Of a stretch of DNA of 64,000 bases, positions 2,477 through 46,206 are shown piece after piece (the first letter of the stretch is position 1; the number at the start of each line of letters is the position of its first letter). A model generated the notes under the pieces. It had not been told where the DNA came from. It ran no database searches and saw nothing but the letters and a program-made list of their open reading frames with translations. The stretch lies in contig NZ_BMCH01000006.1 in assembly GCF_014635085.1 (NCBI RefSeq), forward strand, positions 62,001 to 126,000. The letters are read 5' to 3'. The translations under genes and the position numbers were made by a program. The stretch is from Asaia siamensis. GTDB lineage: Bacteria; Pseudomonadota; Alphaproteobacteria; Acetobacterales; Acetobacteraceae.

Positions 2477-4699
2477 TCAGCCACGCGATGCGGGTTTGCG
2501 TGTCATCCACTGAGGGGCAGCCTTGCCCTGATCGGCGCGCTTGCCTGTAATCGAGGCGAGATCTGCTTCACTGCGCGGCTTTTGCCCCTCATGCCAGACC
2601 AGCCCCTCAGTGCTCGAGAACACACGCAGATCAACCAGACGCTGACCCGGCGGAAGTTTCTGAATGGTGACGCCCATGCCCTTGGTCATCTCCGGCAAGG
2701 CAGAGACCGCAAATGACAGGGCCTTGCGATTGCTACCCATGGTCACAATCTGTTCGCCTGTCACAGCCACGCAGAACGAGGCGCGGTCACCGTCACGCAG
2801 GGTCAGTACCTGCTTGCCCGTACGCTTTTCTGCCGCCATGTCGACATCGCGCACCACCATCCCTCGCCCGCTCTCGCTCGCAAGAATATGGCGGCCGTTC
2901 TCGTCGAGAACAAAGAAGGTGACGATCTCTTCTTCCTGCGGCAGGTCGGCCAGAACACGGATCGGCTGGCCAAAGCCACGTCCACGCGGCAGATCGGCTG
3001 CCTTGAGCGTGAAGACACGCCCCCCGCTCACCAGAAGACATAGTCGCTCGGTGCTCTGGCATTCGAGCGAGAGGCCGAAGGCGTCGCCTTCCTTGAATTT
3101 ATGGCTTTCTGGGTCGATACCGTGCCCCTTGATCGCCCGCACCCAGCCTTCACGCGACAACAGAACGGTCAGCGGTTCGCGATCGAGCTGGATGGCTGCG
3201 CTCAGATCGATCGGCGCAGGGGGCGCTGCAATCTGCGTACGGCGAGCGCCAAGCGCGCCATCGCCAAAGCGCGCTGCGGTCGCCTCAAGCTCCTTGCCGA
3301 TACGGTTCCAGCGCTTGCGCTCACTGCCAAGCAGCCCTTCAAGGCCTGCCTTCTCCTTGAGCAGAGCATCGCGCTCCTTGCGGATCTCGATTTCCTCGAG
3401 CCTGCGCAGCGAACGCAGACGCATGTTCAGCACATATTCGGCCTGCAGCTCTGTCAGGCTGAAGGCCAGCATCAGCTCGGGCTTGGGCTCATCGCCTTCG
3501 CGAATGATGCGGATGACCTCATCCAGATTGAGATAGACCGCCAGAAATCCTTCGAGAATTTCAAGGCGACGTTCCACCGCGCTGAGACGGTGATTCGAAC
3601 GACGAACGAGCACGATTTCACGGTGATCGAGCCATGACTGGATGACCTCCCGCAGCCCCATGACACGTGGCACACGGTTGGCATCCAGCACGTTCATGTT
3701 CAGGCTGAAGCGGCTCTCAAGCGCCGTGACGCGAAAAAGCGTCTCCATCAGCACTTCAGGCTCGATACCCTTGGTCTTCGGCTCAAGAACAAGGCGAATA
3801 TCGGTCGTGCTCTCATCCCGGATATCGGCGAGCAGCGGCAGCTTCTTCTGCTCCATCAGCTCGGCAATCTGCTCGATCAGGCGCGATTTCTGCACCTGAT
3901 AGGGGATTTCGGTCACGATAACGGTCCAGGTACCGAAACGCCCCTGTTCGACGTCCCAACGCGCCCGCGTCCGGAAGCTGCCACGCCCGGTCTCATAGGC
4001 GGCGCGCATGCTCTGCGCTTCCTCGATCAGCACGCCACCTGTTGGGAAGTCCGGCCCAGGCATATACTGCATCAGCGTTTCGACGGGCGCCTGCGGGTCG
4101 TCAATCAGATGACGCGCGGCACGGCAGATTTCGGCAGCATTATGGGGCGGTATGCTGGTCGCCATGCCAACCGCAATACCGGCAGCCCCATTGGCCAGCA
4201 GATTGGGGAAAGCGCCCGGAAGCACAACCGGCTCGGCGTCTTCATTGTCATAGGTCGGGCGGAAATCGACGGCGTCGTCCTCGATGCCCTCCAGCAGCGC
4301 CTTGGCGACTTCGGTCAGACGGGATTCGGTGTAACGCATGGCTGCCGCGTTATCGCCGTCGATCGAGCCAAAATTGCCCTGGCCCTCGACAAGCGGATAG
4401 CGCACGGCAAAATCCTGCGCCAGACGCACCAGCGCCTCATAGACGGCGGCATCGCCATGGGGGTGGAACTTACCGATGACGTCACCCACCACGCGGGCGC
4501 ATTTCTTGAAGCCGGAGCTCGGGTCCAGCTTCAGCTGCTGCATGGCGTAAAGGATGCGGCGATGGACCGGCTTCATCCCGTCACGCACGTCCGGCAGGGA
4601 GCGTGCCATGATGGTCGACATCGCATAGGCGATATACCGCTCGCTCAGCGCATCGGCGAGCTTCGTATCCTCGATATGTCCTGCCAGATCCTGACTCAT
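2477..4699 (-). CDS. parC: DNA topoisomerase IV subunit A
   Basis: Breakage-reunion subunit of topoisomerase IV, which decatenates daughter chromosomes with ParE (not in this window). The 740 residues begin with the winged-helix/tower domains. The active-site tyrosine lies in R-Y-T-E-S-R-L (about residue 121), and the quinolone-determining stretch reads [10 protein letters not shown]. The C-terminal beta-pinwheel lacks the GyrA box (QRRGGRG); it has only R-G-R-G-F-G-Q, which argues for ParC over GyrA, as does the length. At the position of E. coli ParC Ser80 this protein has Ala, while the Glu84 equivalent is kept. Start ATG 4699 gives the usual M-S-Q-D-L opening. Confidence 0.93.
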
Positions 4700-4942
4700 G
4701 CCACGCCCTTTCGTTTCAAGGCAGATAAGGCGGCGCGAGGGGCGCTGTCCAGAGCAAATACCCCGTTTTTGTTCCCATCTTCATTGCACCGGGCCAGGGT
4801 CATGATTTGCCCGTCCTGCCCCTCGATCGCGCAGCTTTTCGCGCAACGGCCAGAGAAAAGTATCATGTCAAGTTAAGAGATTTACAACTTTATGTGTCAG
4901 ACGCCGTTCATCGCTCTCCTCTTCCTGTGAAAGACAGCGATT

Positions 4943-5653
4943 ATGACCCTGACGGTTCTCTGGCTAACTGCCCTGATCATGTTTGCCGGTGGGACGGCCC
5001 TGCTTGTGCTCGGCAAGCGCCGCGCGGAAACCGAAGGGGTAATGAGCCTTGCCCATGGTATCGTGCCCATCATCGCTGGATGCCTCTACGTCGCCATGGC
5101 GACCGGACAGGGCGCCATGCTTCTCCCGACGGATGCCACTCTGGCGGGCGCCGCCAGCACGACCCGCATCTTCTGGTTCGGTCGCTATATCGACTGGGTC
5201 TTCACCACGCCGCTTCTTCTGGTTGGCTTGGGGTTTCTGGGCATGTTCCGCGGCCGCAAGCGGGGCGATCTGCTGCTGGGGGCGGTCTCGGCAGATGTGA
5301 TCATGGTGATCACGGCCTTCGCGTTCAGCGCATCGGAAAACATCGCCAGCCGCTGGATCTGGTTCCTGCTGTCCTGCATCGCCTTTCTGGGCGTGTATTA
5401 CGTTATCTGGGTCTCTCAGCTCGAGGCGAACCGTCTCGAACACCCTGAAGTCCAGAGCGCCTATATCCGAAGCGCTACGATCCTGTCGGTATTGTGGATG
5501 GTCTACCCGATCATTCTGGCTCTCTCGCCCGACGGGCTGGGCATTGTCTCGGACTCCGCCAGTGTCCTGGTGATTGCGGTTACCGATGTCCTTGCGAAGG
5601 TCGGGTTCGGCTTCATCAGCCTGTCGGATGACCGGAAGCTGGCGAGCGTCTGA
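4943..5653 (+). CDS. Light-driven proton-pumping rhodopsin, DTG type
   Basis: Seven-helix retinal protein (236 aa) with helices at about 2-24, 34-54, 74-101, 109-131, 137-158, 174-194 and 204-227. Helix C carries R81, D84, W85, T88, T89 and P90, matching bacteriorhodopsin R82/D85/W86/T89/T90/P91, so the primary acceptor is present. Helix G has D215 and the Schiff-base lysine K219 (T-D-V-L-A-K-V-G-F-G). The cytoplasmic donor (BR D96) is replaced by G95. A histidine, H38, sits in helix B where BR has T46. The D-T-G motif plus helix-B His is the signature of a described proteobacterial group of outward proton pumps. The retinal-forming blh gene follows 31 bp downstream. The ribosome-binding site is weak (GAAAGACAG). 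Confidence 0.95.
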   Translation: MTLTVLWLTALIMFAGGTALLVLGKRRAETEGVMSLAHGIVPIIAGCLYVAMATGQGAMLLPTDATLAGAASTTRIFWFGRYIDWVFTTPLLLVGLGFLGMFRGRKRGDLLLGAVSADVIMVITAFAFSASENIASRWIWFLLSCIAFLGVYYVIWVSQLEANRLEHPEVQSAYIRSATILSVLWMVYPIILALSPDGLGIVSDSASVLVIAVTDVLAKVGFGFISLSDDRKLASV

Positions 5654-5684
5654 CCGTGTCTCGCCCGGGGCGCGCCCTGTGATC

Positions 5685-6584
5685 ATGACAGGACGCCACG
5701 ACCCTTTTCTACGCCTCTACTGGGGCTGCGCCGTGATACTCGCCGCAGCCTCGATCCTGACCAGCAGCACATTACTGGCCCTCGCGGCGATCATTCTTTT
5801 CGGGCTGCCCCATGGCGCCCTCGATGGTGAAATGGCGCGTCAGATCCTACGCCCCCGGTGCGGAGCGGCATGGTTCATTCTCTTTGCGCTCCCTTATCTC
5901 GCCCTGCTCGCCCTCGTGCTCGTTCTGTGGCGCCTCTATCCGCTTGCAACGCTGACCGGCTTCCTTGCCCTCTCCCTCTGGCATTTCGGAAGTGAGACAA
6001 GCGAGAGCAGCGCATCGATACTCAGCGCGCTGATATATGGCGGCGCGCCACTCATCCTGCCGTGCGTTTTTCACCCGGCGGCAACAGCCTCCCTGCTAAG
6101 CGCGATGGCGCCACCAACGCATCTTACCTCCCCGCCCTTCTGGCTGGTCTGGCTTTTCCCGTTCTGGGTCATGGCAGCGAGTGCCTGGCTTGGCGTAACC
6201 CCTCGCGAGAAACGTTTGGAGAAACTGGGATTGCTCTGCGGGCTGACTGCGGTGTTCGCCGTGCTGCCGCCTTTGCAGGCATTCATGATCTATTTCATTT
6301 TCCAGCACGCGCCGGCCCATGTCGCGACGCTTGTCGAAGACAGGCGATGGAAACGCCTGGTCTCGGCGCAAGCGGCGTTACGCTACAGCCTGAGTCTGAC
6401 GGCAGCGACGCTGATTATCGGCGCCTTGCTGATCCCGTTTTATACTGGCCCCATGGTCGAGCGGCTGCTTTCCCTTACCTTCCAGCTTCTGGCGGCGTTG
6501 ACGCTGCCTCATATGGTATTCGACTTCCTGACAGGCCAAATAAAAGAAGAAACGCAGCTCTGGTCAGCCACCCGCCCCGTCTGA
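5685..6584 (+). CDS. blh: Beta-carotene 15,15'-dioxygenase, Brp/Blh family
   Basis: Integral-membrane non-haem iron enzyme that cleaves beta-carotene into two retinals, the chromophore of the rhodopsin encoded just upstream. The 299-residue product is strongly hydrophobic with about eight membrane helices. It keeps the family histidines that bind iron: H43 in G-L-P-H-G-A-L-D, H100 in L-W-H-F-G, H208 and H212 in F-Q-H-A-P-A-H, and H276 in L-P-H-M-V-F-D. I chose ATG 5685; a GTG at 5679 is also possible. The gene probably shares a transcript with the rhodopsin gene. Its last 21 bases overlap the 3' end of recO on the other strand. No carotenoid synthesis gene is present in the window. Confidence 0.93.
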   Translation: MTGRHDPFLRLYWGCAVILAAASILTSSTLLALAAIILFGLPHGALDGEMARQILRPRCGAAWFILFALPYLALLALVLVLWRLYPLATLTGFLALSLWHFGSETSESSASILSALIYGGAPLILPCVFHPAATASLLSAMAPPTHLTSPPFWLVWLFPFWVMAASAWLGVTPREKRLEKLGLLCGLTAVFAVLPPLQAFMIYFIFQHAPAHVATLVEDRRWKRLVSAQAALRYSLSLTAATLIIGALLIPFYTGPMVERLLSLTFQLLAALTLPHMVFDFLTGQIKEETQLWSATRPV

Positions 6585-7373
6585 CGGCGATAGCGAACGA
6601 TCCTCCTGCTCGCCCTCTTCGTCAGCTTTCGGCATAGCCAGCGCTCTGACGCGCATTTCCAGTCGCTCCCTTGCGCCAGGAACAGGCCGATGGCGTGCGC
6701 CAAACAAATGGCGAGCGAGAAAATGCCCTGTCAGAGCAAGGCCCTGTGCCCAAAGTATCGGGTCATCAGCGCCCTCATCGCCACCATCCGGACGGAGATA
6801 GGCAGGAAGTGGCAGAAGGCGGTCGGTCCAGATTCCTGCCCCTTCCGCACTCACAGCGCGACCGGTTTTCGGGGAGACATAGCGCAGCCCATCCTGCACG
6901 CCAGTCACTGCGCAGGAAACGAGCGTCAGACCATAACCGAGCGTGGCAAGAAGCGCCGTCTCCCAACGGACGTAATCGATTACCGGCGCCGGGTCGGCCA
7001 GCACGCAGAAGGCGGTCAGGTCGCGTATCGTCCGCAGAAAGAAATCAGGATGGGGTTCGCGATCCGGCAAGGCGGAATCGGTCAGTTCGGCAGCGGCCTG
7101 AACGAGGGCAAGCTGCAAGGGGCGGTCAAGAAGCCTGACGGCTGTTTCCTGCACCATTTCGCCAGTCAACTGACCAAGCTGGTCAGACAGGCGTGAGGCA
7201 TAACGGGCCAGAATGAGATTGCCCGGTTGCCAGAGCGCGGCCTGACGCCGTGACGAACCGCCACGCACCAGACCGGCAATGCGGCCATACTCTTCGGTGA
7301 AGAGATGGACCACCGCCCCGCCCTCGCCGTAGCGGCGGGCAGAGAGGACGATCGCGGCGCATTCGAAATTCAT
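6564..7373 (-). CDS. recO: DNA repair protein RecO
   Basis: Recombination mediator that, with RecR, loads RecA on SSB-coated DNA. The 269-residue protein has the N-terminal OB-fold opening (E-x-x-A-I-V-L-S-A-R-R-Y-G-E-G-G, then V-x-L-F-T-E-E-Y-G-R-I-A-G-L-V-R-G) typical of the family. The central helical region and C-terminal part are less conserved, and the length is normal (about 240-270 aa). It lies 33 bp downstream of tsf on the same strand and could be cotranscribed with rpsB-tsf. The 3' end overlaps blh by 21 bp. Confidence 0.9.
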   Translation of the reverse strand: MNFECAAIVLSARRYGEGGAVVHLFTEEYGRIAGLVRGGSSRRQAALWQPGNLILARYASRLSDQLGQLTGEMVQETAVRLLDRPLQLALVQAAAELTDSALPDREPHPDFFLRTIRDLTAFCVLADPAPVIDYVRWETALLATLGYGLTLVSCAVTGVQDGLRYVSPKTGRAVSAEGAGIWTDRLLPLPAYLRPDGGDEGADDPILWAQGLALTGHFLARHLFGARHRPVPGARERLEMRVRALAMPKADEEGEQEDRSLSPSDGAGG

Positions 7374-9199: not shown

Positions 9200-9718
9200 G
9201 ATGCAAATTCCTGTTCTTCTGGTTGTGCCTCCGTATGACTTCGCCAGCCTTGCAGGCCGACACCAGATAGTCTGTCGTCATACGTGCGAATTGCCCTTCT
9301 CCCCGACAGCGGAGCCGCCAGAGAAGTTAGACGGGCGCGGTATCGCCTTTTTTGCCCCAAAAGGCAAGGACGAAGCACCCAATCGCAGAGGAAACATGCA
9401 TCCCGCCCTGGAACGATGTCAGGGAGCGACGCTATTTGCGCGCCGCAGCGCATCGCCGGATGCTTTGACTGGCGCCCTCCCTTGCCTGGACCGTGAGCCC
9501 CAAGCGCGCGCATCAGGCCGCAGCCTTTTGCAAAAGTGAACCGGACCCGCTGATTCGATGCAATTTCGAAAGAAAAATCCTGTGCGTGCACACCGGACGT
9601 GTCATGTTCACGCAATGTTGCCCTGCTAAGCGCTCCGCCGCGCACAGGGTCCCTCACACCCGCGCCATACCTTTTGACCTGGGTGGCCCCGGCGGCACCC
9701 ATTTTCGGAATTACGTCG
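9200..9718. other. 519-bp intergenic region between rpsB and the two-component system
   Basis: No convincing gene. Small open frames occur on both strands, but none has a recognisable product or a good ribosome-binding site. The interval must hold the divergent promoters for rpsB (minus) and the response regulator (plus). An imperfect hairpin lies at 9345-9365 (arms GCCTTTT and AAAAGGC, loop of 7), inside what would be the rpsB leader. Near 9596-9616 the arms CGTG and CACG form a weak dyad upstream of the response regulator. I assign no function to either. Confidence 0.5.
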
Positions 9719-10390
9719 ATGCGGATCCTGTTGATTGAAGACGAACTGGATATGGCGGTGCTGATTACCAGAAGCGTCCAGGACGCAGGATTCGCGATCG
9801 ATTCCGCGCGCGCGCTCGCCGATGCACGGGAAATGGCGGCCCTCGCCTCCTATGCGCTCATCATCCTTGACCGCCGGCTCCCCGATGGGGACGGCCTCAG
9901 CCTTATCCGGAGTTTACGCACTGCGCAGCCCGGTGCGCCCATCATCGTCCTCTCCGCACTGGACGCCGTGCCGGACAGGGTTCAGGGCTTGAATGAAGGA
10001 GCGGATGACTATCTCGCCAAACCATTTGACATGGCGGAGCTTCTTGCGCGGGCAAGGGCCGCGCTGCGTCGCCCCGGCGCTGAAGACACGCCGCCCATGA
10101 TCTGCGGCCGTCTTGGTTTCCACCCCTCGACGCGAGAAGTCACGATCGATGGAACCCCGGTGCTGTTCAAACGGCGCGAGCTTGCTGTCCTCGAGACACT
10201 GATACGGCGCGCCGGCAGGGTCGTCAGGCGCGAGACTCTGATCGAGGAAGTCTATGGATTCGACGATGAGATCCAGTCCAACACGCTGGATGCGCATATC
10301 TCACGTCTGCGCGTCCGACTTACCGCTTTCAAGGCGGGTATTGTAATTCATCCGATCCGCGGGGTCGGCTATCTTCTGGACCAGTGCTGA
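9719..10390 (+). CDS. OmpR-family response regulator
   Basis: Cytoplasmic two-component transcription factor (223 aa). The N-terminal receiver domain (about residues 1-115) has the acidic pocket E7-D8, the phosphoacceptor D51 in I-I-L-D-R-R-L-P-D-G-D-G, and the conserved Lys in D-D-Y-L-A-K-P-F. The C-terminal winged helix (about 130-223) has the OmpR-type R-R-E-L-A-V-L-E-T-L and V-R-R-E-T-L-I-E-E-V-Y stretches, and H-I-S-R-L-R-V-R-L as recognition helix. I placed the start at ATG 9719 (M-R-I-L-L-I-E-D), the normal start for the family; the frame is open upstream to 9599 without homology. The kinase gene starts on the base after its stop. The signal sensed is unknown. Confidence 0.92.
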   Translation: MRILLIEDELDMAVLITRSVQDAGFAIDSARALADAREMAALASYALIILDRRLPDGDGLSLIRSLRTAQPGAPIIVLSALDAVPDRVQGLNEGADDYLAKPFDMAELLARARAALRRPGAEDTPPMICGRLGFHPSTREVTIDGTPVLFKRRELAVLETLIRRAGRVVRRETLIEEVYGFDDEIQSNTLDAHISRLRVRLTAFKAGIVIHPIRGVGYLLDQC

Positions 10391-11764
10391 ATGTGGATTC
10401 CCCGTTTCACCTCTTTGCGGATACGCATGACGGCCCTGCTGCTCGGCATTCAGCTCGTCTGTGTGCTCTTCGTGGTCTTTCTGCACCCGTTTCTTATACC
10501 AGATACGAGCTATACCGACATCGCGGATATCACGACCCAAGACCTTATCGAGGACTCGCTCACCGCTGACGCCTCGGGTGCGCTGGTCATCGCCCCCACA
10601 CCGGCCCTGCGCCGATATGCCGCCACCCGGCCTGAACTGATCTACGCAATTGCAGGCGCTGACGGGCAGATCGCCCGTGGCTCGAACAAATATCTCAGCG
10701 ACCTGCTGAAGCAAATTGCCCCCGTGCGACTGGAAGACTCCGAAGGCTTTGATACGAGGCGGCCCGGCAAGGGGCCGATCTATTTCGACACGCTCGAAAC
10801 CCGTTTCGGCAAGCTCTTTATTGCAGTGACAGGAGAGGCGTTCGGGATCGCGGACATCCCAAGCTTTTTCGAGTTATTCAAGCCTCTCGTTCTTGTTTAC
10901 AGCCCGCTGATGATCGGGGTCTTCATCTCACTTCCCCTTCTGATCATCTGGGCTCTGCGCCCGCTCAGCCTTGTCAAACGCGCTGCGGCCTCGATCGATC
11001 TTCATAATATCGATCATCCGCTTCCGACAGACGGATTGCCCAATGAGCTTCGTCCCGCCGTCGAGGCAATCAATGCTGCTCTCGCGCGTATTGCTGTCGG
11101 CTGGCAGCAGCAGCATTTCTTCATGGCCAATGCCGCTCATGAACTGCGTACTCCCGTTGCCATACTCCAGGCACGCATCGACCAGATCAGGCTCGATAGC
11201 GAGAGCCGGATGAGTCTGGGGCGCGATGTGCATCGGCTGCGCCGTCTGGTCGATCAGCTCCTGATCATCGCCCGTCTGGACCGGCAACAGACGACCTCTT
11301 TCACGCCCCTCGACATCGTGGACCTCTTACAGGGCGTGCTGGCGGATTGCGCACCTTATGTTCTGCGCAGCCGCCGATCGATCGACCTGCAGTGCAGTGT
11401 TCCGAAATGTGAGATCACTGGTGATCGGCAGGCGCTTGGTAGCCTTCTGACGAATCTGATCGACAACGCGACGAAGGCCGAACCCGAGGGAGGGACGATC
11501 TTTGTGAAGCTGGACGCTGCACCTACGCATATCACCATCGCGGTTTCCGATCATGGGGCGGGGATTGCCGAGGAAGATCGTCAGCATGTGTTCGAGCCGT
11601 TCTGGCGAAAGGACCATCACGAGCCAGGGACTGGTCTGGGCCTCGCTGCTGCGAGGGACATCGTGACGCTTCATGGCGGTAGCATACAGATCGACCAGAC
11701 ACCGGGGGGTGGCGCAAGTTTCAAAGTGGTCCTTCCCGTAGACCCGTCCATTTCGCCCAGATGA
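10391..11764 (+). CDS. Two-component sensor histidine kinase (TctE/QseC-like)
   Basis: Membrane sensor kinase of 457 residues that should phosphorylate the regulator encoded immediately upstream; stop and start codons abut. Two membrane helices (about residues 12-36 and 168-190) flank a periplasmic region of about 130 residues with no recognised domain. A short HAMP-like linker follows. The phosphoacceptor is H250 in N-A-A-H-E-L-R-T-P. The ATPase domain has the N box L-I-D-N-A-T-K, the G1 box D-H-G-A-G-I and the G2 box G-T-G-L-G-L-A. The architecture is like QseC/TctE kinases, but the ligand cannot be inferred because no transporter or target gene lies beside it. Confidence 0.92.
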   Translation: MWIPRFTSLRIRMTALLLGIQLVCVLFVVFLHPFLIPDTSYTDIADITTQDLIEDSLTADASGALVIAPTPALRRYAATRPELIYAIAGADGQIARGSNKYLSDLLKQIAPVRLEDSEGFDTRRPGKGPIYFDTLETRFGKLFIAVTGEAFGIADIPSFFELFKPLVLVYSPLMIGVFISLPLLIIWALRPLSLVKRAAASIDLHNIDHPLPTDGLPNELRPAVEAINAALARIAVGWQQQHFFMANAAHELRTPVAILQARIDQIRLDSESRMSLGRDVHRLRRLVDQLLIIARLDRQQTTSFTPLDIVDLLQGVLADCAPYVLRSRRSIDLQCSVPKCEITGDRQALGSLLTNLIDNATKAEPEGGTIFVKLDAAPTHITIAVSDHGAGIAEEDRQHVFEPFWRKDHHEPGTGLGLAAARDIVTLHGGSIQIDQTPGGGASFKVVLPVDPSISPR

Positions 11765-43335: not shown

Positions 43336-46206
43336 TTGTCCAATACCGCGCCGCATCACGCCCCTGACGGAACGCCCGCCCAGAAGGCGGACCAGAAACC
43401 TGCCGCCATCGCCAGTGAGGGCGCCGTTTTTGCCGAACGTCTGACAGGCGAGATGCAGGCGCTTCAGGATCGCGCCGCGCATGAGCGCCACGCACCGGAC
43501 CCGATCGAAACATTATCGAGCCAGATCGGTGACGAACTGATCGACGGCAATCTCTCGGTTGCGACCCTTGAGAACACCGTGCGCGTGCTGCGCGACGGCA
43601 ATCTCAAGCAACGTGCTGCGCGGCTGCGCAGCTATGTCGGCCTGAAAGGTGAGGCACCACCCGAGGAGCGCCTCGACGAGGCCGCACGCAAGACGGTCGA
43701 AAGCTGCGACACGGTCGAAGGGCTGATTGCCAAGCTTTCCCGCCCCGGCTTTGCAGCCGTCTTTACCGCGCACCCGACCTTCGCTCTGGCCGATAATGTC
43801 TATCGCCACATCGTCGAGATGGCGACTGACCCCAGCCACAAGCTGCCCGAACTGAAGTCGCACCGTCGCGAGGGCGCCCCTACCCTCGCCCATGAGCAGA
43901 ATCTGGCGCTTACCGCCATCCTGCGCGGGCGCGATGCGCTCGATATCTTCAATGCGTCCATCCTGAAACACGCTGCCGCGCGCTGGCCCGAGCAGGAGGC
44001 CGCTCTCGCTTCATTCGATATCAGAACGCTCATTCTGGCGACCTGGGTCGGGTTCGACACAGATGGCCGCAGCGACATCCACTGGTGGGACACGCTGCGC
44101 ATTCGCCTTGCGCTCAAGCGCACACAGCTCGAACGCCTGCGCACGCAGCTCGAATCCCTGCTGCCGCAATGCTCGCAACTCGTCGCCCGTATCGATGTCG
44201 CGCTGGGTGCGGTGAAGGAGCAGGAAGCCGCCTGCCCCGACCAGCAGCATCATGACGCCGTCGCTATCGCCGATTTTGCCCGGACTCTGGTGAGCCGACG
44301 CGAAGCCGCGCTCAGTTCAGCCGAGATACTGGCACCGCTTTTCGACGAGGCGCTCGCGCTGGTCGAAGGCCCGAAGCGCGCAGCCCTGCTGACAGCCCGC
44401 TCGGGCTTCATGGCACACGGCCTGGGTGCAGCCCATATCCATACCCGCCTGAACGCGACCCAGATTTACAACGTGGTGCGTCATCGTCTCGGCATTGAAG
44501 ACGATCCCACCATTCCGTCGCGCCGCCGCCTCGTTCTGTCGCAGATCAACGAGGCCCTAGAATCGCTCAAGGCGCCCATTCCCGTCGATTTCGGCGCACT
44601 GATGATTGAGCAGTCTTCGGCTGGTCGTCTGATGATGACCATGGCGCAGATCCTCAAGCATATCGATTGTGGCACACCGATCCGCTTCCTGATTGCCGAG
44701 ACCGAGAGTGGCTATACGCTGCTCGCGACACTCTGGCTGGCGCGTCTGCTGGGTATTCGTGACGACCAGATCCAGATTTCGCCGCTTTTCGAAACGCAGA
44801 GCGCTCTCGAACACGGCGAGATCATTCTCGAGGAAGCGTTCCGCTCGCCGCACTGGCGCGACTACATCCGCAATAATGGCCGTCTCTGCCTGCAATTCGG
44901 CTATTCGGATTCGGGACGCTATATCGGCCAGCTTGCCGCGACCAATCTGGTCGAGCGCCTGCGCCTGCGTACGCTGTCGCTCATGCAGAAACACGGCATG
45001 AAGGATATCGAACTCGTTCTGTTCGACACCCATGGCGAGAGCATCGGCCGCGGCGCCCATCCCTTCAGCCTGTCGGACCGTCTCAGCTATTTCTCGCCGG
45101 ACCATACCCGCGGTCTTTTCGCCAAGGCTGGCATCAGCCTACGTGAGGAAGCGGCCTTTCAGGGCGGCGATGGCTACACGCTGTTCGGTACCGCACCGCT
45201 TGCCGCCTCGACAATTGCGACCCTCGCAGAGCATCTGACCCGTCCGCTTTCAACCGCGCGCGACCCGATCTATGACGAGCCGGATTTCTCATCCGACTTC
45301 TTCTCGACCATCGCACTCGACATGAGCAGCCTGGTTGAAGATCCCGGCTATGCAGGGCTGCTCGGGGCGTTCGGTCCGGCACTCATCGATAAATCAGGCT
45401 CGCGTCCCTCGGCCCGTCAGGGCGATGGCATCAGCGTGACGCGGATCACCCATCCGAGCCAGCTGCGTGCCATCCCGAACAACGCCATTCTCGAACAACT
45501 CGGCTGGTGGACGAATGTGCTTCAGGGCTTCGGCACGGCAGCCTCGCGCCACCCCGAAACCTTCGAGAAACTGGCCCGCAGCAGCCGACGCTTCGGCCTT
45601 GCGCTGGATTTTGCCCGACAGGCAGCGGCGCATTCCGATATCGGTGCCCTGCGCGGTATCGTGCGCCTTCTCGACCCCGGCACCTGGCTCGACCGTGCGG
45701 CTTCTGCCCGCAACGAAGAGCAGCGCAGCCAGCATCTCGTTCTGGCGAGCGGACTGGAAGAGCTGGAATTCTGGCGCAGCCTGCCTGCGATGTTCCGACG
45801 CATCCAGGCCGATCACATCGCGCTCGAATCAGTCTGGAGCCACACCCTCAAGATGAGTGCGCAGGAGCGTACGCTTCACGCGATCCGTCATGCCGTCATC
45901 GGCCAGATCTGGATTCTGGCCACGCGCATCCCCTATTTCAGCCCGCGCAATGACATCAACCGCGAGACGCTGCTCAAGCTCGTGCTGCAACTCGAGATTC
46001 CGGCTGTGCTCAAGCGTCTGTCGGAAATCTTCCCGCAATCGGCCGGGATGGTTACCGATCTCGACTTCCATGAGCCCAGCGGGCCGCGTGACGATCATGG
46101 CTTCACGCGCGAGCACGAAGAAATCTTCGCGCCGATGGCGCGTCTTTTTGCCGTTCTGCGTGAAATCAGCGTAGCGGTCATGCATGCCAATGGCTCGTTC
46201 GGCTGA
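43336..46206 (+). CDS. Divergent phosphoenolpyruvate carboxylase homologue
   Basis: About 956 residues from TTG 43336 (the next in-frame ATG is 43453). The order of blocks is that of PEPC: T-A-H-P-T with H146, then G-F-D-T-D-G, S-P-L-F-E-T, G-Y-S-D-S (522-526), G-E-S-I-G-R-G (567-573) and S-Q-L-R-A-I-P. The signatures are altered. TAHPTE is TAHPTF; the Lys and Asp of GYSDSxKD are R528 and Y529; HGRGGSIGRGG is shortened to HGESIGRGA; GGDRDGNP is GFDTDGRS; and the C-terminal M-R-N-T-G is replaced. The fold is surely PEPC, but activity as an anaplerotic PEP-to-oxaloacetate enzyme is doubtful. No operon partner suggests another role; the next gene encodes an unknown secreted protein. Confidence 0.85.
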   Translation: MSNTAPHHAPDGTPAQKADQKPAAIASEGAVFAERLTGEMQALQDRAAHERHAPDPIETLSSQIGDELIDGNLSVATLENTVRVLRDGNLKQRAARLRSYVGLKGEAPPEERLDEAARKTVESCDTVEGLIAKLSRPGFAAVFTAHPTFALADNVYRHIVEMATDPSHKLPELKSHRREGAPTLAHEQNLALTAILRGRDALDIFNASILKHAAARWPEQEAALASFDIRTLILATWVGFDTDGRSDIHWWDTLRIRLALKRTQLERLRTQLESLLPQCSQLVARIDVALGAVKEQEAACPDQQHHDAVAIADFARTLVSRREAALSSAEILAPLFDEALALVEGPKRAALLTARSGFMAHGLGAAHIHTRLNATQIYNVVRHRLGIEDDPTIPSRRRLVLSQINEALESLKAPIPVDFGALMIEQSSAGRLMMTMAQILKHIDCGTPIRFLIAETESGYTLLATLWLARLLGIRDDQIQISPLFETQSALEHGEIILEEAFRSPHWRDYIRNNGRLCLQFGYSDSGRYIGQLAATNLVERLRLRTLSLMQKHGMKDIELVLFDTHGESIGRGAHPFSLSDRLSYFSPDHTRGLFAKAGISLREEAAFQGGDGYTLFGTAPLAASTIATLAEHLTRPLSTARDPIYDEPDFSSDFFSTIALDMSSLVEDPGYAGLLGAFGPALIDKSGSRPSARQGDGISVTRITHPSQLRAIPNNAILEQLGWWTNVLQGFGTAASRHPETFEKLARSSRRFGLALDFARQAAAHSDIGALRGIVRLLDPGTWLDRAASARNEEQRSQHLVLASGLEELEFWRSLPAMFRRIQADHIALESVWSHTLKMSAQERTLHAIRHAVIGQIWILATRIPYFSPRNDINRETLLKLVLQLEIPAVLKRLSEIFPQSAGMVTDLDFHEPSGPRDDHGFTREHEEIFAPMARLFAVLREISVAVMHANGSFG

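What the first reader, a model, noticed from the sequence alone, without database searches (positions are those of the whole stretch)
4943..6584. Rhodopsin of the DTG type paired with its own retinal-forming enzyme
The proton pump has Asp84 and Thr88 on helix C but Gly95 in place of the usual carboxylic donor, and His38 on helix B where bacteriorhodopsin has Thr46. This is the feature set of a described proteobacterial group thought to use the histidine in the donor complex. The blh gene directly downstream shows that the cell can make retinal from beta-carotene. If the host is an acetic acid bacterium, light would support a cell known for membrane oxidases.
Basis: partly seen in the sequence, partly recalled or inferred. 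Interest (0 to 1): 0.75.

Follow-up and report, generated by a model that had tools for sequence, protein, structure and literature searches.

The report
Light pump without its pigment supply

Summary
Window 4943-5653 (+) encodes a 236-aa microbial rhodopsin with D84, T88, G95 and H38 (at bacteriorhodopsin D85, T89, D96, T46). 31 bp on, 5685-6584 encodes a Brp/Blh beta-carotene dioxygenase with its histidines intact. The host is an Asaia species. The pair was already reported in A. bogorensis (Kawai 2015).

The interpretation needs two corrections. (1) The protein belongs to an Acetobacteraceae/Methylobacterium clade, sister to the SpaR/PspR 'mirror' clade; MpR, reported as a Na+/Li+ pump, is described from the Methylobacterium side. 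Asaia is mosaic: E31 and H38 inside, SpaR-type serines outside. In 9 of 9 Asaia genomes there is no phytoene synthase beyond the hopanoid pair and no lycopene cyclase; the window's genome carries a squalene-based C30 carotenoid cluster.

Best explanation: an outward proton pump reprotonated through E31/H38, loaded with retinal that Blh makes from beta-carotene taken from plants or insects. A lycopene cyclase was found in 0 of 20 genomes with only this rhodopsin clade, against 5 of 5 Acetobacteraceae with only another Blh-linked type (7 of 7 with two genomes from outside the family).

The parts
4943..5653 (+). rhodopsin gene (236 aa), motif D84-T88-G95, H38, E31, Schiff-base lysine K219
   Evidence: AlphaFold model pLDDT 79, best solved matches SpaR 8anq (Z 30.6) and PspR 7w74 (Z 29.9), tied with each other and 7w74 with many other rhodopsins
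5685..6584 (+). blh, Brp/Blh-family beta-carotene 15,15'-dioxygenase (299 aa); His43, 100, 208, 212, 276 conserved
4881..4899 (+). conserved 19-nt element upstream of the rhodopsin start, possible control site (function unknown)
   Evidence: alignment of the intergenic region in 8 Asaia/Swaminathania loci; no second copy with 3 or fewer changes in the window or in L107, L108, L109, L150; one copy with 4 changes at 44465
2477..4699 (-). parC, left flank, divergent; same flank in 7 of 7 other Asaia/Swaminathania loci
6564..7373 (-). recO, right flank, convergent; same flank in 7 of 7 other loci

Best explanation
A two-gene light-energy cassette whose pigment precursor must come from outside. The rhodopsin most likely pumps protons outward: D84 takes the Schiff-base proton, and with no carboxylate at position 95 the Schiff base is reprotonated from the cytoplasm through E31 and H38, which lie on one face of helix B. 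Blh splits beta-carotene into two retinals, but this cell is predicted to make only squalene-derived C30 pigments, so the beta-carotene is taken from flowers, fruit or an insect gut. Shown: the genes, the residues, their conservation, the C30 cluster, and the lack of a recognisable C40 condensation and ring closure. Inferred: ion, direction, donor role, source of beta-carotene. Rough odds: outward proton pump 0.75; outside beta-carotene as Blh substrate 0.6.
For: D84, T88, R81, D215, K219, H38 and E31 are invariant in 23 of 23 clade rows; residue 95 is G 10, S 6, T 6, A 1. Blh occurs in 25 of 30 rhodopsin-bearing genomes and 0 of 20 rhodopsin-free ones. Blh histidines 43, 100, 208 conserved in 39/39 rows, 212 in 37/39, 276 in 33/33. 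Purifying selection on both genes. Missing route: the window's genome has two SQS_PSY genes, HpnC and HpnD, beside HpnA, HpnB, HpnE and squalene-hopene cyclase; the same pair was scored as HpnC/HpnD with HpnE in the single-contig Asaia genome G149, and in 9 of 9 Asaia a CrtB model finds only such a pair, under its cut-off; two prenyl synthases in the window's genome; no lycopene cyclase by PF05834, PF18916 or TIGR01790 in 9 of 9 Asaia. C30 cluster: two CrtI-family genes, aldehyde dehydrogenase, glycosyltransferase, acyltransferase side by side, the gene set described for C30 carotenoids (PMC10448405, passages). Lycopene cyclase in 0 of 20 genomes with only this rhodopsin clade, 5 of 5 Acetobacteraceae with only another Blh-linked type (p 2e-5 by genome, 0.002 by genus with the mixed genus left out, 0.015 with it counted against; rows not independent). 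No carotenoid gene among 19 neighbour proteins scanned around rho-blh in 8 other genomes.
Against: Antolak et al. 2017 (PMC6151773; section 5 part 1 and passages read) report beta-carotene in A. bogorensis (not A. lannensis) and other C40 carotenoids in both, identified against standards. But the printed masses of the 8 compounds I computed differ from the named formulae by 76 to 687 ppm on an Orbitrap. The source cited for MpR says Na+/Li+ pump. No uptake route for beta-carotene is known here. Blh evolves faster than rhodopsin and recO and is split into two frames in G299 and G181. No CruA/CruP model was searched.
Confidence: 0.5

Rival explanations
1. The cell does make beta-carotene, by a phytoene synthase and a cyclase too diverged to be recognised, or by HpnD acting on C20 precursors.
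For: Blh is conserved beside the rhodopsin and its histidines are intact; Antolak 2017 reports beta-carotene in A. bogorensis.
Against: C40 condensation and ring closure both lack candidates, and no third prenyl synthase is seen in the window's genome, while the same searches find a cyclase in 8 of 30 rhodopsin genomes, 5 of them diverged enough to fall under the TIGR01790 cut-off yet full-length in PF05834. Both CrtI-family genes sit in a complete-looking C30 cluster. The single-contig genome G149 shows the same lack. CruA/CruP-type cyclases were not searched with a model of their own.
Confidence: 0.2
2. The pump moves Na+ or Li+ rather than H+, as reported for MpR of Methylobacterium populi, a relative of its clade neighbours.
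For: Clade placement with two Methylobacterium rows (93/96 support), 43-46% identity; E31 shared with them; claim of Cho et al. as told in PMC10154332.
Against: MpR's other carboxylates E33 and D35 are G32 and M34 in 9 of 9 Asaia/Swaminathania rows, whereas the extracellular serines typical of the proton-pumping SpaR clade are present in 9 of 9 (S129, S207).
Confidence: 0.15
3. Blh no longer matters or acts on something else; the rhodopsin takes up ready-made retinal from the surroundings, as proposed for other bacteria.
For: Blh evolves much faster than rhodopsin (median dN 0.52 against 0.088) and is frame-split in G299 and G181. Rhodoluna lacicola needed added retinal, and Saccharibacteria rhodopsins bind added retinal (PMC7734400, PMC9296517, passages).
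Against: Blh is found in 9 of 9 Asaia and in Swaminathania (two pieces in G299), with conserved histidines and dN/dS under 1; the two genes share clade history down to Methylobacterium.
Confidence: 0.2
4. The rhodopsin is a light sensor, not a pump.
For: A response regulator lies 4 kb away (9599-10390), followed by an ORF (10391-11764) that I read by eye as a kinase.
Against: No third gene in the pair that could be a transducer, residues of pumps kept, same cassette in unrelated gene neighbourhoods.
Confidence: 0.05

Closest known systems
MpR-like DTG/DTS rhodopsins (Methylobacterium populi MpR; 60-member clade of PMC10154332)
   Same: Nearest relatives outside Acetobacteraceae seen here are two Methylobacterium plasmid rhodopsins (46% and 43%), each with blh next door; H38 and E31 shared.
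   Different: G32 and M34 instead of MpR's E33 and D35; extracellular S129 and S207 present. Locus between parC and recO. MpR itself was not compared.
Mirror proteorhodopsins (SpaR, PspR/7w74, PaR)
   Same: Asp/Thr/Gly-Ser motif, His at the T46 position, extracellular serines; top structural matches (Z 30.6 and 29.9, nearly tied with many other rhodopsins).
   Different: Sister clade (100/99 for the mirror clade), 31-33% identity; V33/M34 instead of the H32/H33 pair; E31 instead of Ser.
Asaia bogorensis rhodopsin - beta-carotene monooxygenase operon (Kawai et al. 2015, PMC4596401, one passage read)
   Same: The same two-gene operon, reported from the A. bogorensis genome with the same suggested roles.
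   Different: That passage says nothing of motif, clade or lack of a beta-carotene route.
Rhodopsin bacteria without blh (Rhodoluna lacicola, Saccharibacteria; PMC7734400, PMC9296517, passages)
   Same: Rhodopsin whose pigment cannot be fully made by known genes of the host.
   Different: Those lack blh; Asaia keeps blh but lacks steps before it.

Membership tests
Microbial (type 1) rhodopsins | Seven-helix Bac_rhodopsin domain with Schiff-base lysine on helix G | tested here: met
   PF01036 E 8.6e-42; K219; model with seven helices matches solved rhodopsins, TM (query) 0.82-0.88 in the 50 rows shown
DTG-type rhodopsins | Asp, Thr, Gly at the D85/T89/D96 positions and His at T46 | tested here: met
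   D84, T88, G95, H38; 95 is Ser in Swaminathania
Mirror proteorhodopsin clade (SpaR/PspR) | Falls inside the SpaR/PspR clade in a tree | tested here: not met
   Sister clade; mirror rows 100/99, Asaia with Acetobacteraceae and Methylobacterium 93/96 (program flags long branches for the mirror rows)
Mirror proteorhodopsin clade (SpaR/PspR) | H32 and H33 at the cytoplasmic end of helix B | tested here: not met
   V33 and M34 in 9 of 9 Asaia/Swaminathania rows
Mirror proteorhodopsin clade (SpaR/PspR) | S121 and S199 (SpaR numbering) | tested here: met
   S129 and S207 in 9 of 9 rows
Mirror proteorhodopsin clade (SpaR/PspR) | Outward proton pumping only at acidic pH | not testable with these tools
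   needs an experiment
MpR-like clade | Groups with Methylobacterium DTG rhodopsins | tested here: met
   93/96, using two Methylobacterium plasmid rows; MpR itself was not in hand
MpR-like clade | Carboxylates E32, E33, D35 (MpR numbering; 'most' members) | tested here: inconclusive
   E31 yes, G32 and M34 no: one of three
Brp/Blh beta-carotene dioxygenases | TIGR03753/PF15461 match over cut-off and conserved histidines | tested here: met
   180 bits against 95.25; five conserved histidines
Brp/Blh beta-carotene dioxygenases | Forms retinal from beta-carotene | not testable with these tools
   needs an enzyme assay
Self-sufficient rhodopsin phototrophy (crtEBIY + blh + rhodopsin) | Phytoene synthase and lycopene cyclase in the genome | tested here: not met
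   CruA/CruP not modelled

The most novel reading that the evidence does not exclude
This rhodopsin clade plus its own Blh clade forms a mobile 'salvage phototrophy' cassette: bacteria that make only C30 or linear carotenoids turn beta-carotene eaten from plants or insects into retinal, so light use depends on a host's provitamin A. The E31-H38 pair would be a donor arrangement of its own.
Probability: 0.4. Interest if true: 0.75.

Novelty: new variant of a known kind. Interest (0 to 1): 0.5.

Why it matters
A rhodopsin with blh is easily read as proof that a cell is a light user on its own. Here the gene pair is present and under selection, but the precursor route is not recognisable across a genus known from flowers, fruit and insects (habitat: recalled, and from abstracts in listings). 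If right, light use in Asaia depends on what plant or insect supplies, and 'blh present' should not be scored as 'retinal made'. It also casts doubt on the published C40 carotenoid list for Asaia and predicts a C30 pigment, which is easy to test.

Tried and rejected
Considered and rejected: (a) that one of the two phytoene-synthase-like genes is CrtB: in G000 and G149 both score as HpnC and HpnD over their cut-offs and lie with HpnE; in the other 7 Asaia genomes the pair was seen by position and score only (in G259 one gene is in two pieces, so three matches). (b) That PF05834 or TIGR01790 hits in Asaia are lycopene cyclases: the listed ones are FAD-motif matches (at most 158 of 380 and 144 of 387 positions) in other oxidoreductases. 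The eight genomes I count as having a cyclase match 294 or more of 387 positions of TIGR01790; only three of them (G026, G260, G312) pass its cut-off, the other five score 67-94 bits, but those five give full-length PF05834 matches of 155-193 bits against a cut-off of 23.4. (c) That an unknown cyclase travels with rho-blh: neighbours in 8 other genomes show no carotenoid family among the 19 proteins scanned; several long ORFs there had no Pfam match, some probably on the wrong strand. (d) Recent foreign DNA: GC of rho (0.613) and blh (0.607) is that of the neighbours; GC3 of rho (0.785) is a little above their 0.63-0.74. (e) The conserved 19-nt upstream element as a shared control site with the C30 cluster: no second copy there. 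(f) No solved structure resembles Blh by sequence at E 0.1. Not done: searching a Methylobacterium genome for lycopene cyclase (no handle); a model for CruA/CruP cyclases; reading Cho et al., Harris et al. or the supplements.

Of the 20 clade-only genomes, ten (9 Asaia and Swaminathania) were searched with all three cyclase models, the other ten with TIGR01790 alone. Of the seven genomes with only another Blh-linked type, five are Acetobacteraceae (G018, G026, G105, G260, G284); G312 and G516 were taken from 36 rhodopsin genomes of the class search, G312 knowing that it had a cyclase. G260 and G105 rhodopsins are fragments: G105 was counted by its DTE motif, G260 by its Blh and cyclase. G017 has both types and was left out of the 20 and the 7; G084 and G148 carry a third type without blh and without cyclase and were left out too. 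The genus of G017 (g18) holds three genomes without and one with a cyclase. G128, G163 and G206 (85, 73 and 67% complete) lack a Blh match. Three prenyl synthase matches in G300 (contamination 9%) and four pieces in G299 were not resolved. The trees were rooted at midpoint and flagged for long branches.

Full report
Check of the observation. The ORF at 4943-5653 is a rhodopsin and the ORF at 5685-6584 a Brp/Blh dioxygenase. Counting from the ATG gives H38, R81, D84, T88, G95, D215 and K219. SpaR's H37 lies at the place of bacteriorhodopsin T46 (PMC10154332 section 10), and H38 aligns with it.

Host. The nearest records are Asaia species and Swaminathania salitolerans (84-92% best-segment identity over nearly the whole protein). 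The window lies in G000, 3.32 Mb, 18 contigs, rated 100% complete. In 7 of 7 other Asaia/Swaminathania loci tested the pair sits between parC and recO. Kawai et al. 2015 already described a rhodopsin and beta-carotene monooxygenase operon in A. bogorensis (PMC4596401, one passage).

Which rhodopsin. A tree of 50 rows puts the Asaia proteins with other Acetobacteraceae and two Methylobacterium plasmid proteins (93/96). The mirror clade (SpaR, the P. putida DTG structure 7w74, Pantoea and Sphingomonas rows) is its sister (100/99; both together 100/99; the program flags the mirror rows' long branch). PMC10154332 describes two DTG/DTS clades, one proton-pumping (SpaR) and one holding MpR, which Cho et al. 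called a Na+/Li+ pump (section 6; Cho et al. not read). All 23 rows of the Asaia clade keep E31 and H38, and position 95 is G 10, S 6, T 6, A 1. Asaia is a mosaic by that paper's diagnostic residues: no H32/H33 pair, one of three MpR carboxylates, both SpaR extracellular serines. The DTG triplet itself is not stable: Swaminathania has DTS. The AlphaFold model (mean pLDDT 79) matches SpaR and PspR best, nearly tied with many other rhodopsins, so the fold does not decide the ion. E31 and H38 are seven residues apart, thus on one face of helix B; that they form the proton uptake path is my inference.

Where does retinal come from. I looked for each step. Condensation: the genome has two SQS_PSY genes, which score as HpnC and HpnD and lie with HpnA, HpnB, HpnE and squalene-hopene cyclase; the single-contig Asaia genome G149 has the same HpnC, HpnD and HpnE; in all 9 Asaia genomes a CrtB model finds only one such pair, under its cut-off. 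C20 precursor: two polyprenyl synthases in 7 of 9 Asaia and in Swaminathania, three matches in G300 (contamination 9%) and four pieces in G299, against three or four in 4 of 5 searched genomes with a cyclase (G260 has two). Desaturation: two adjacent CrtI-family genes. Ring closure: no lycopene cyclase by PF05834, PF18916 or TIGR01790 in 9 of 9 Asaia or in Swaminathania. The two CrtI-family genes stand beside an aldehyde dehydrogenase, a glycosyltransferase and an acyltransferase. This is the kind of set described for glycosylated C30 carotenoid acids made from HpnCDE squalene in Methylobacterium extorquens (PMC10448405, passages). So the genome predicts C30 pigments and no beta-carotene. No paper naming this for Asaia came up in the listings, which cover only the open PMC library and show only part of the longer lists.

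Conflicting report. Antolak et al. 2017 list beta-carotene (in A. bogorensis, not A. lannensis), zeaxanthin, astaxanthin and others from Asaia (PMC6151773, section 5 part 1). They state comparison with standards and an Orbitrap. The printed masses differ from the named formulae by 76 to 687 ppm, taking for each the nearer of [M+H]+ and M+. (8 of the 10 carotenoids computed; synechoxanthin and myxoxanthophyll not computed). I therefore give that report little weight, but it is direct evidence against my reading.

Is it general. Of 299 Acetobacteraceae genomes 26 have a rhodopsin. I examined 30 rhodopsin genomes: those 26, two further Asaia (G299, G300, rhodopsin seen) and two of the 36 found in the class (G312, G516). 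Twenty carry only the Asaia-type clade: none has a long lycopene cyclase match. Five Acetobacteraceae carry only another Blh-linked type: all five do, and so do the two class genomes, of which G312 was picked knowing this. One (G017) carries both types, and has it. Two (G084, G148) carry a third type with neither blh nor cyclase. Five of the eight cyclases fall under the TIGR01790 cut-off but are full-length PF05834 matches of 155-193 bits. The contrast is sharp but the genomes are related: p is 2e-5 by genome in the family, 0.002 by genus with the mixed genus g18 left out and 0.015 with g18 counted as having a cyclase. Blh sits in 25 of the 30 and in none of 20 rhodopsin-free genomes. Blh proteins of this clade, Methylobacterium included, group together (91/85), as their rhodopsins do, so the two genes have probably travelled together. 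Some of the 20 have further desaturases, synthases or prenyl synthases, of a kind that linear C40 carotenoids of purple phototrophs would need (reading from general knowledge), so 'no ring closure', not 'C30 only', is the common point.

Selection. Median dN/dS is 0.062 for rhodopsin, 0.28 for blh (22 of 28 pairs usable), 0.124 for recO among eight Asaia/Swaminathania loci (simple counting method, high dS). Blh is kept but changes fast. It is split into two frames in G299 and G181, both draft genomes.

Verdict. The pair is real, known in this genus and ordinary in fold. What is new is that the enzyme next to the rhodopsin has no recognisable home-made substrate. The likeliest reading is salvage of beta-carotene from plant or insect; hidden C40 enzymes and use of ready-made retinal remain open.

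Noticed in passing
window 4881-4899 (+): A 19-nt stretch 43 nt before the rhodopsin start is largely kept in 8 Asaia/Swaminathania loci while most of the DNA before it is not; function unknown.
   Followed up: partly
L150:6755-13330 (G000 C8): Predicted C30 carotenoid cluster (glycosyltransferase, acyltransferase, two CrtI-family genes, aldehyde dehydrogenase), perhaps the source of Asaia's pigment.
   Followed up: partly
L175/L179 (G299), L174/L178 (G181): blh split into two reading frames while rhodopsin is open; assembly error or real loss.
   Followed up: no
G084 and G148 (L086, L087): Rhodopsins of a third, distant type with no blh match and no long lycopene cyclase match in the genome.
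   Followed up: no
L009-L015: Actinobacterial (Solirubrobacterales and relatives) DTG rhodopsins, 7 of 7 with Ser instead of His at the T46 position but with a His pair at the SpaR H32/H33 positions.
   Followed up: no
PMC6151773: Published Asaia carotenoid masses deviate by 76-687 ppm from the named formulae in 8 of 8 computed.
   Followed up: yes
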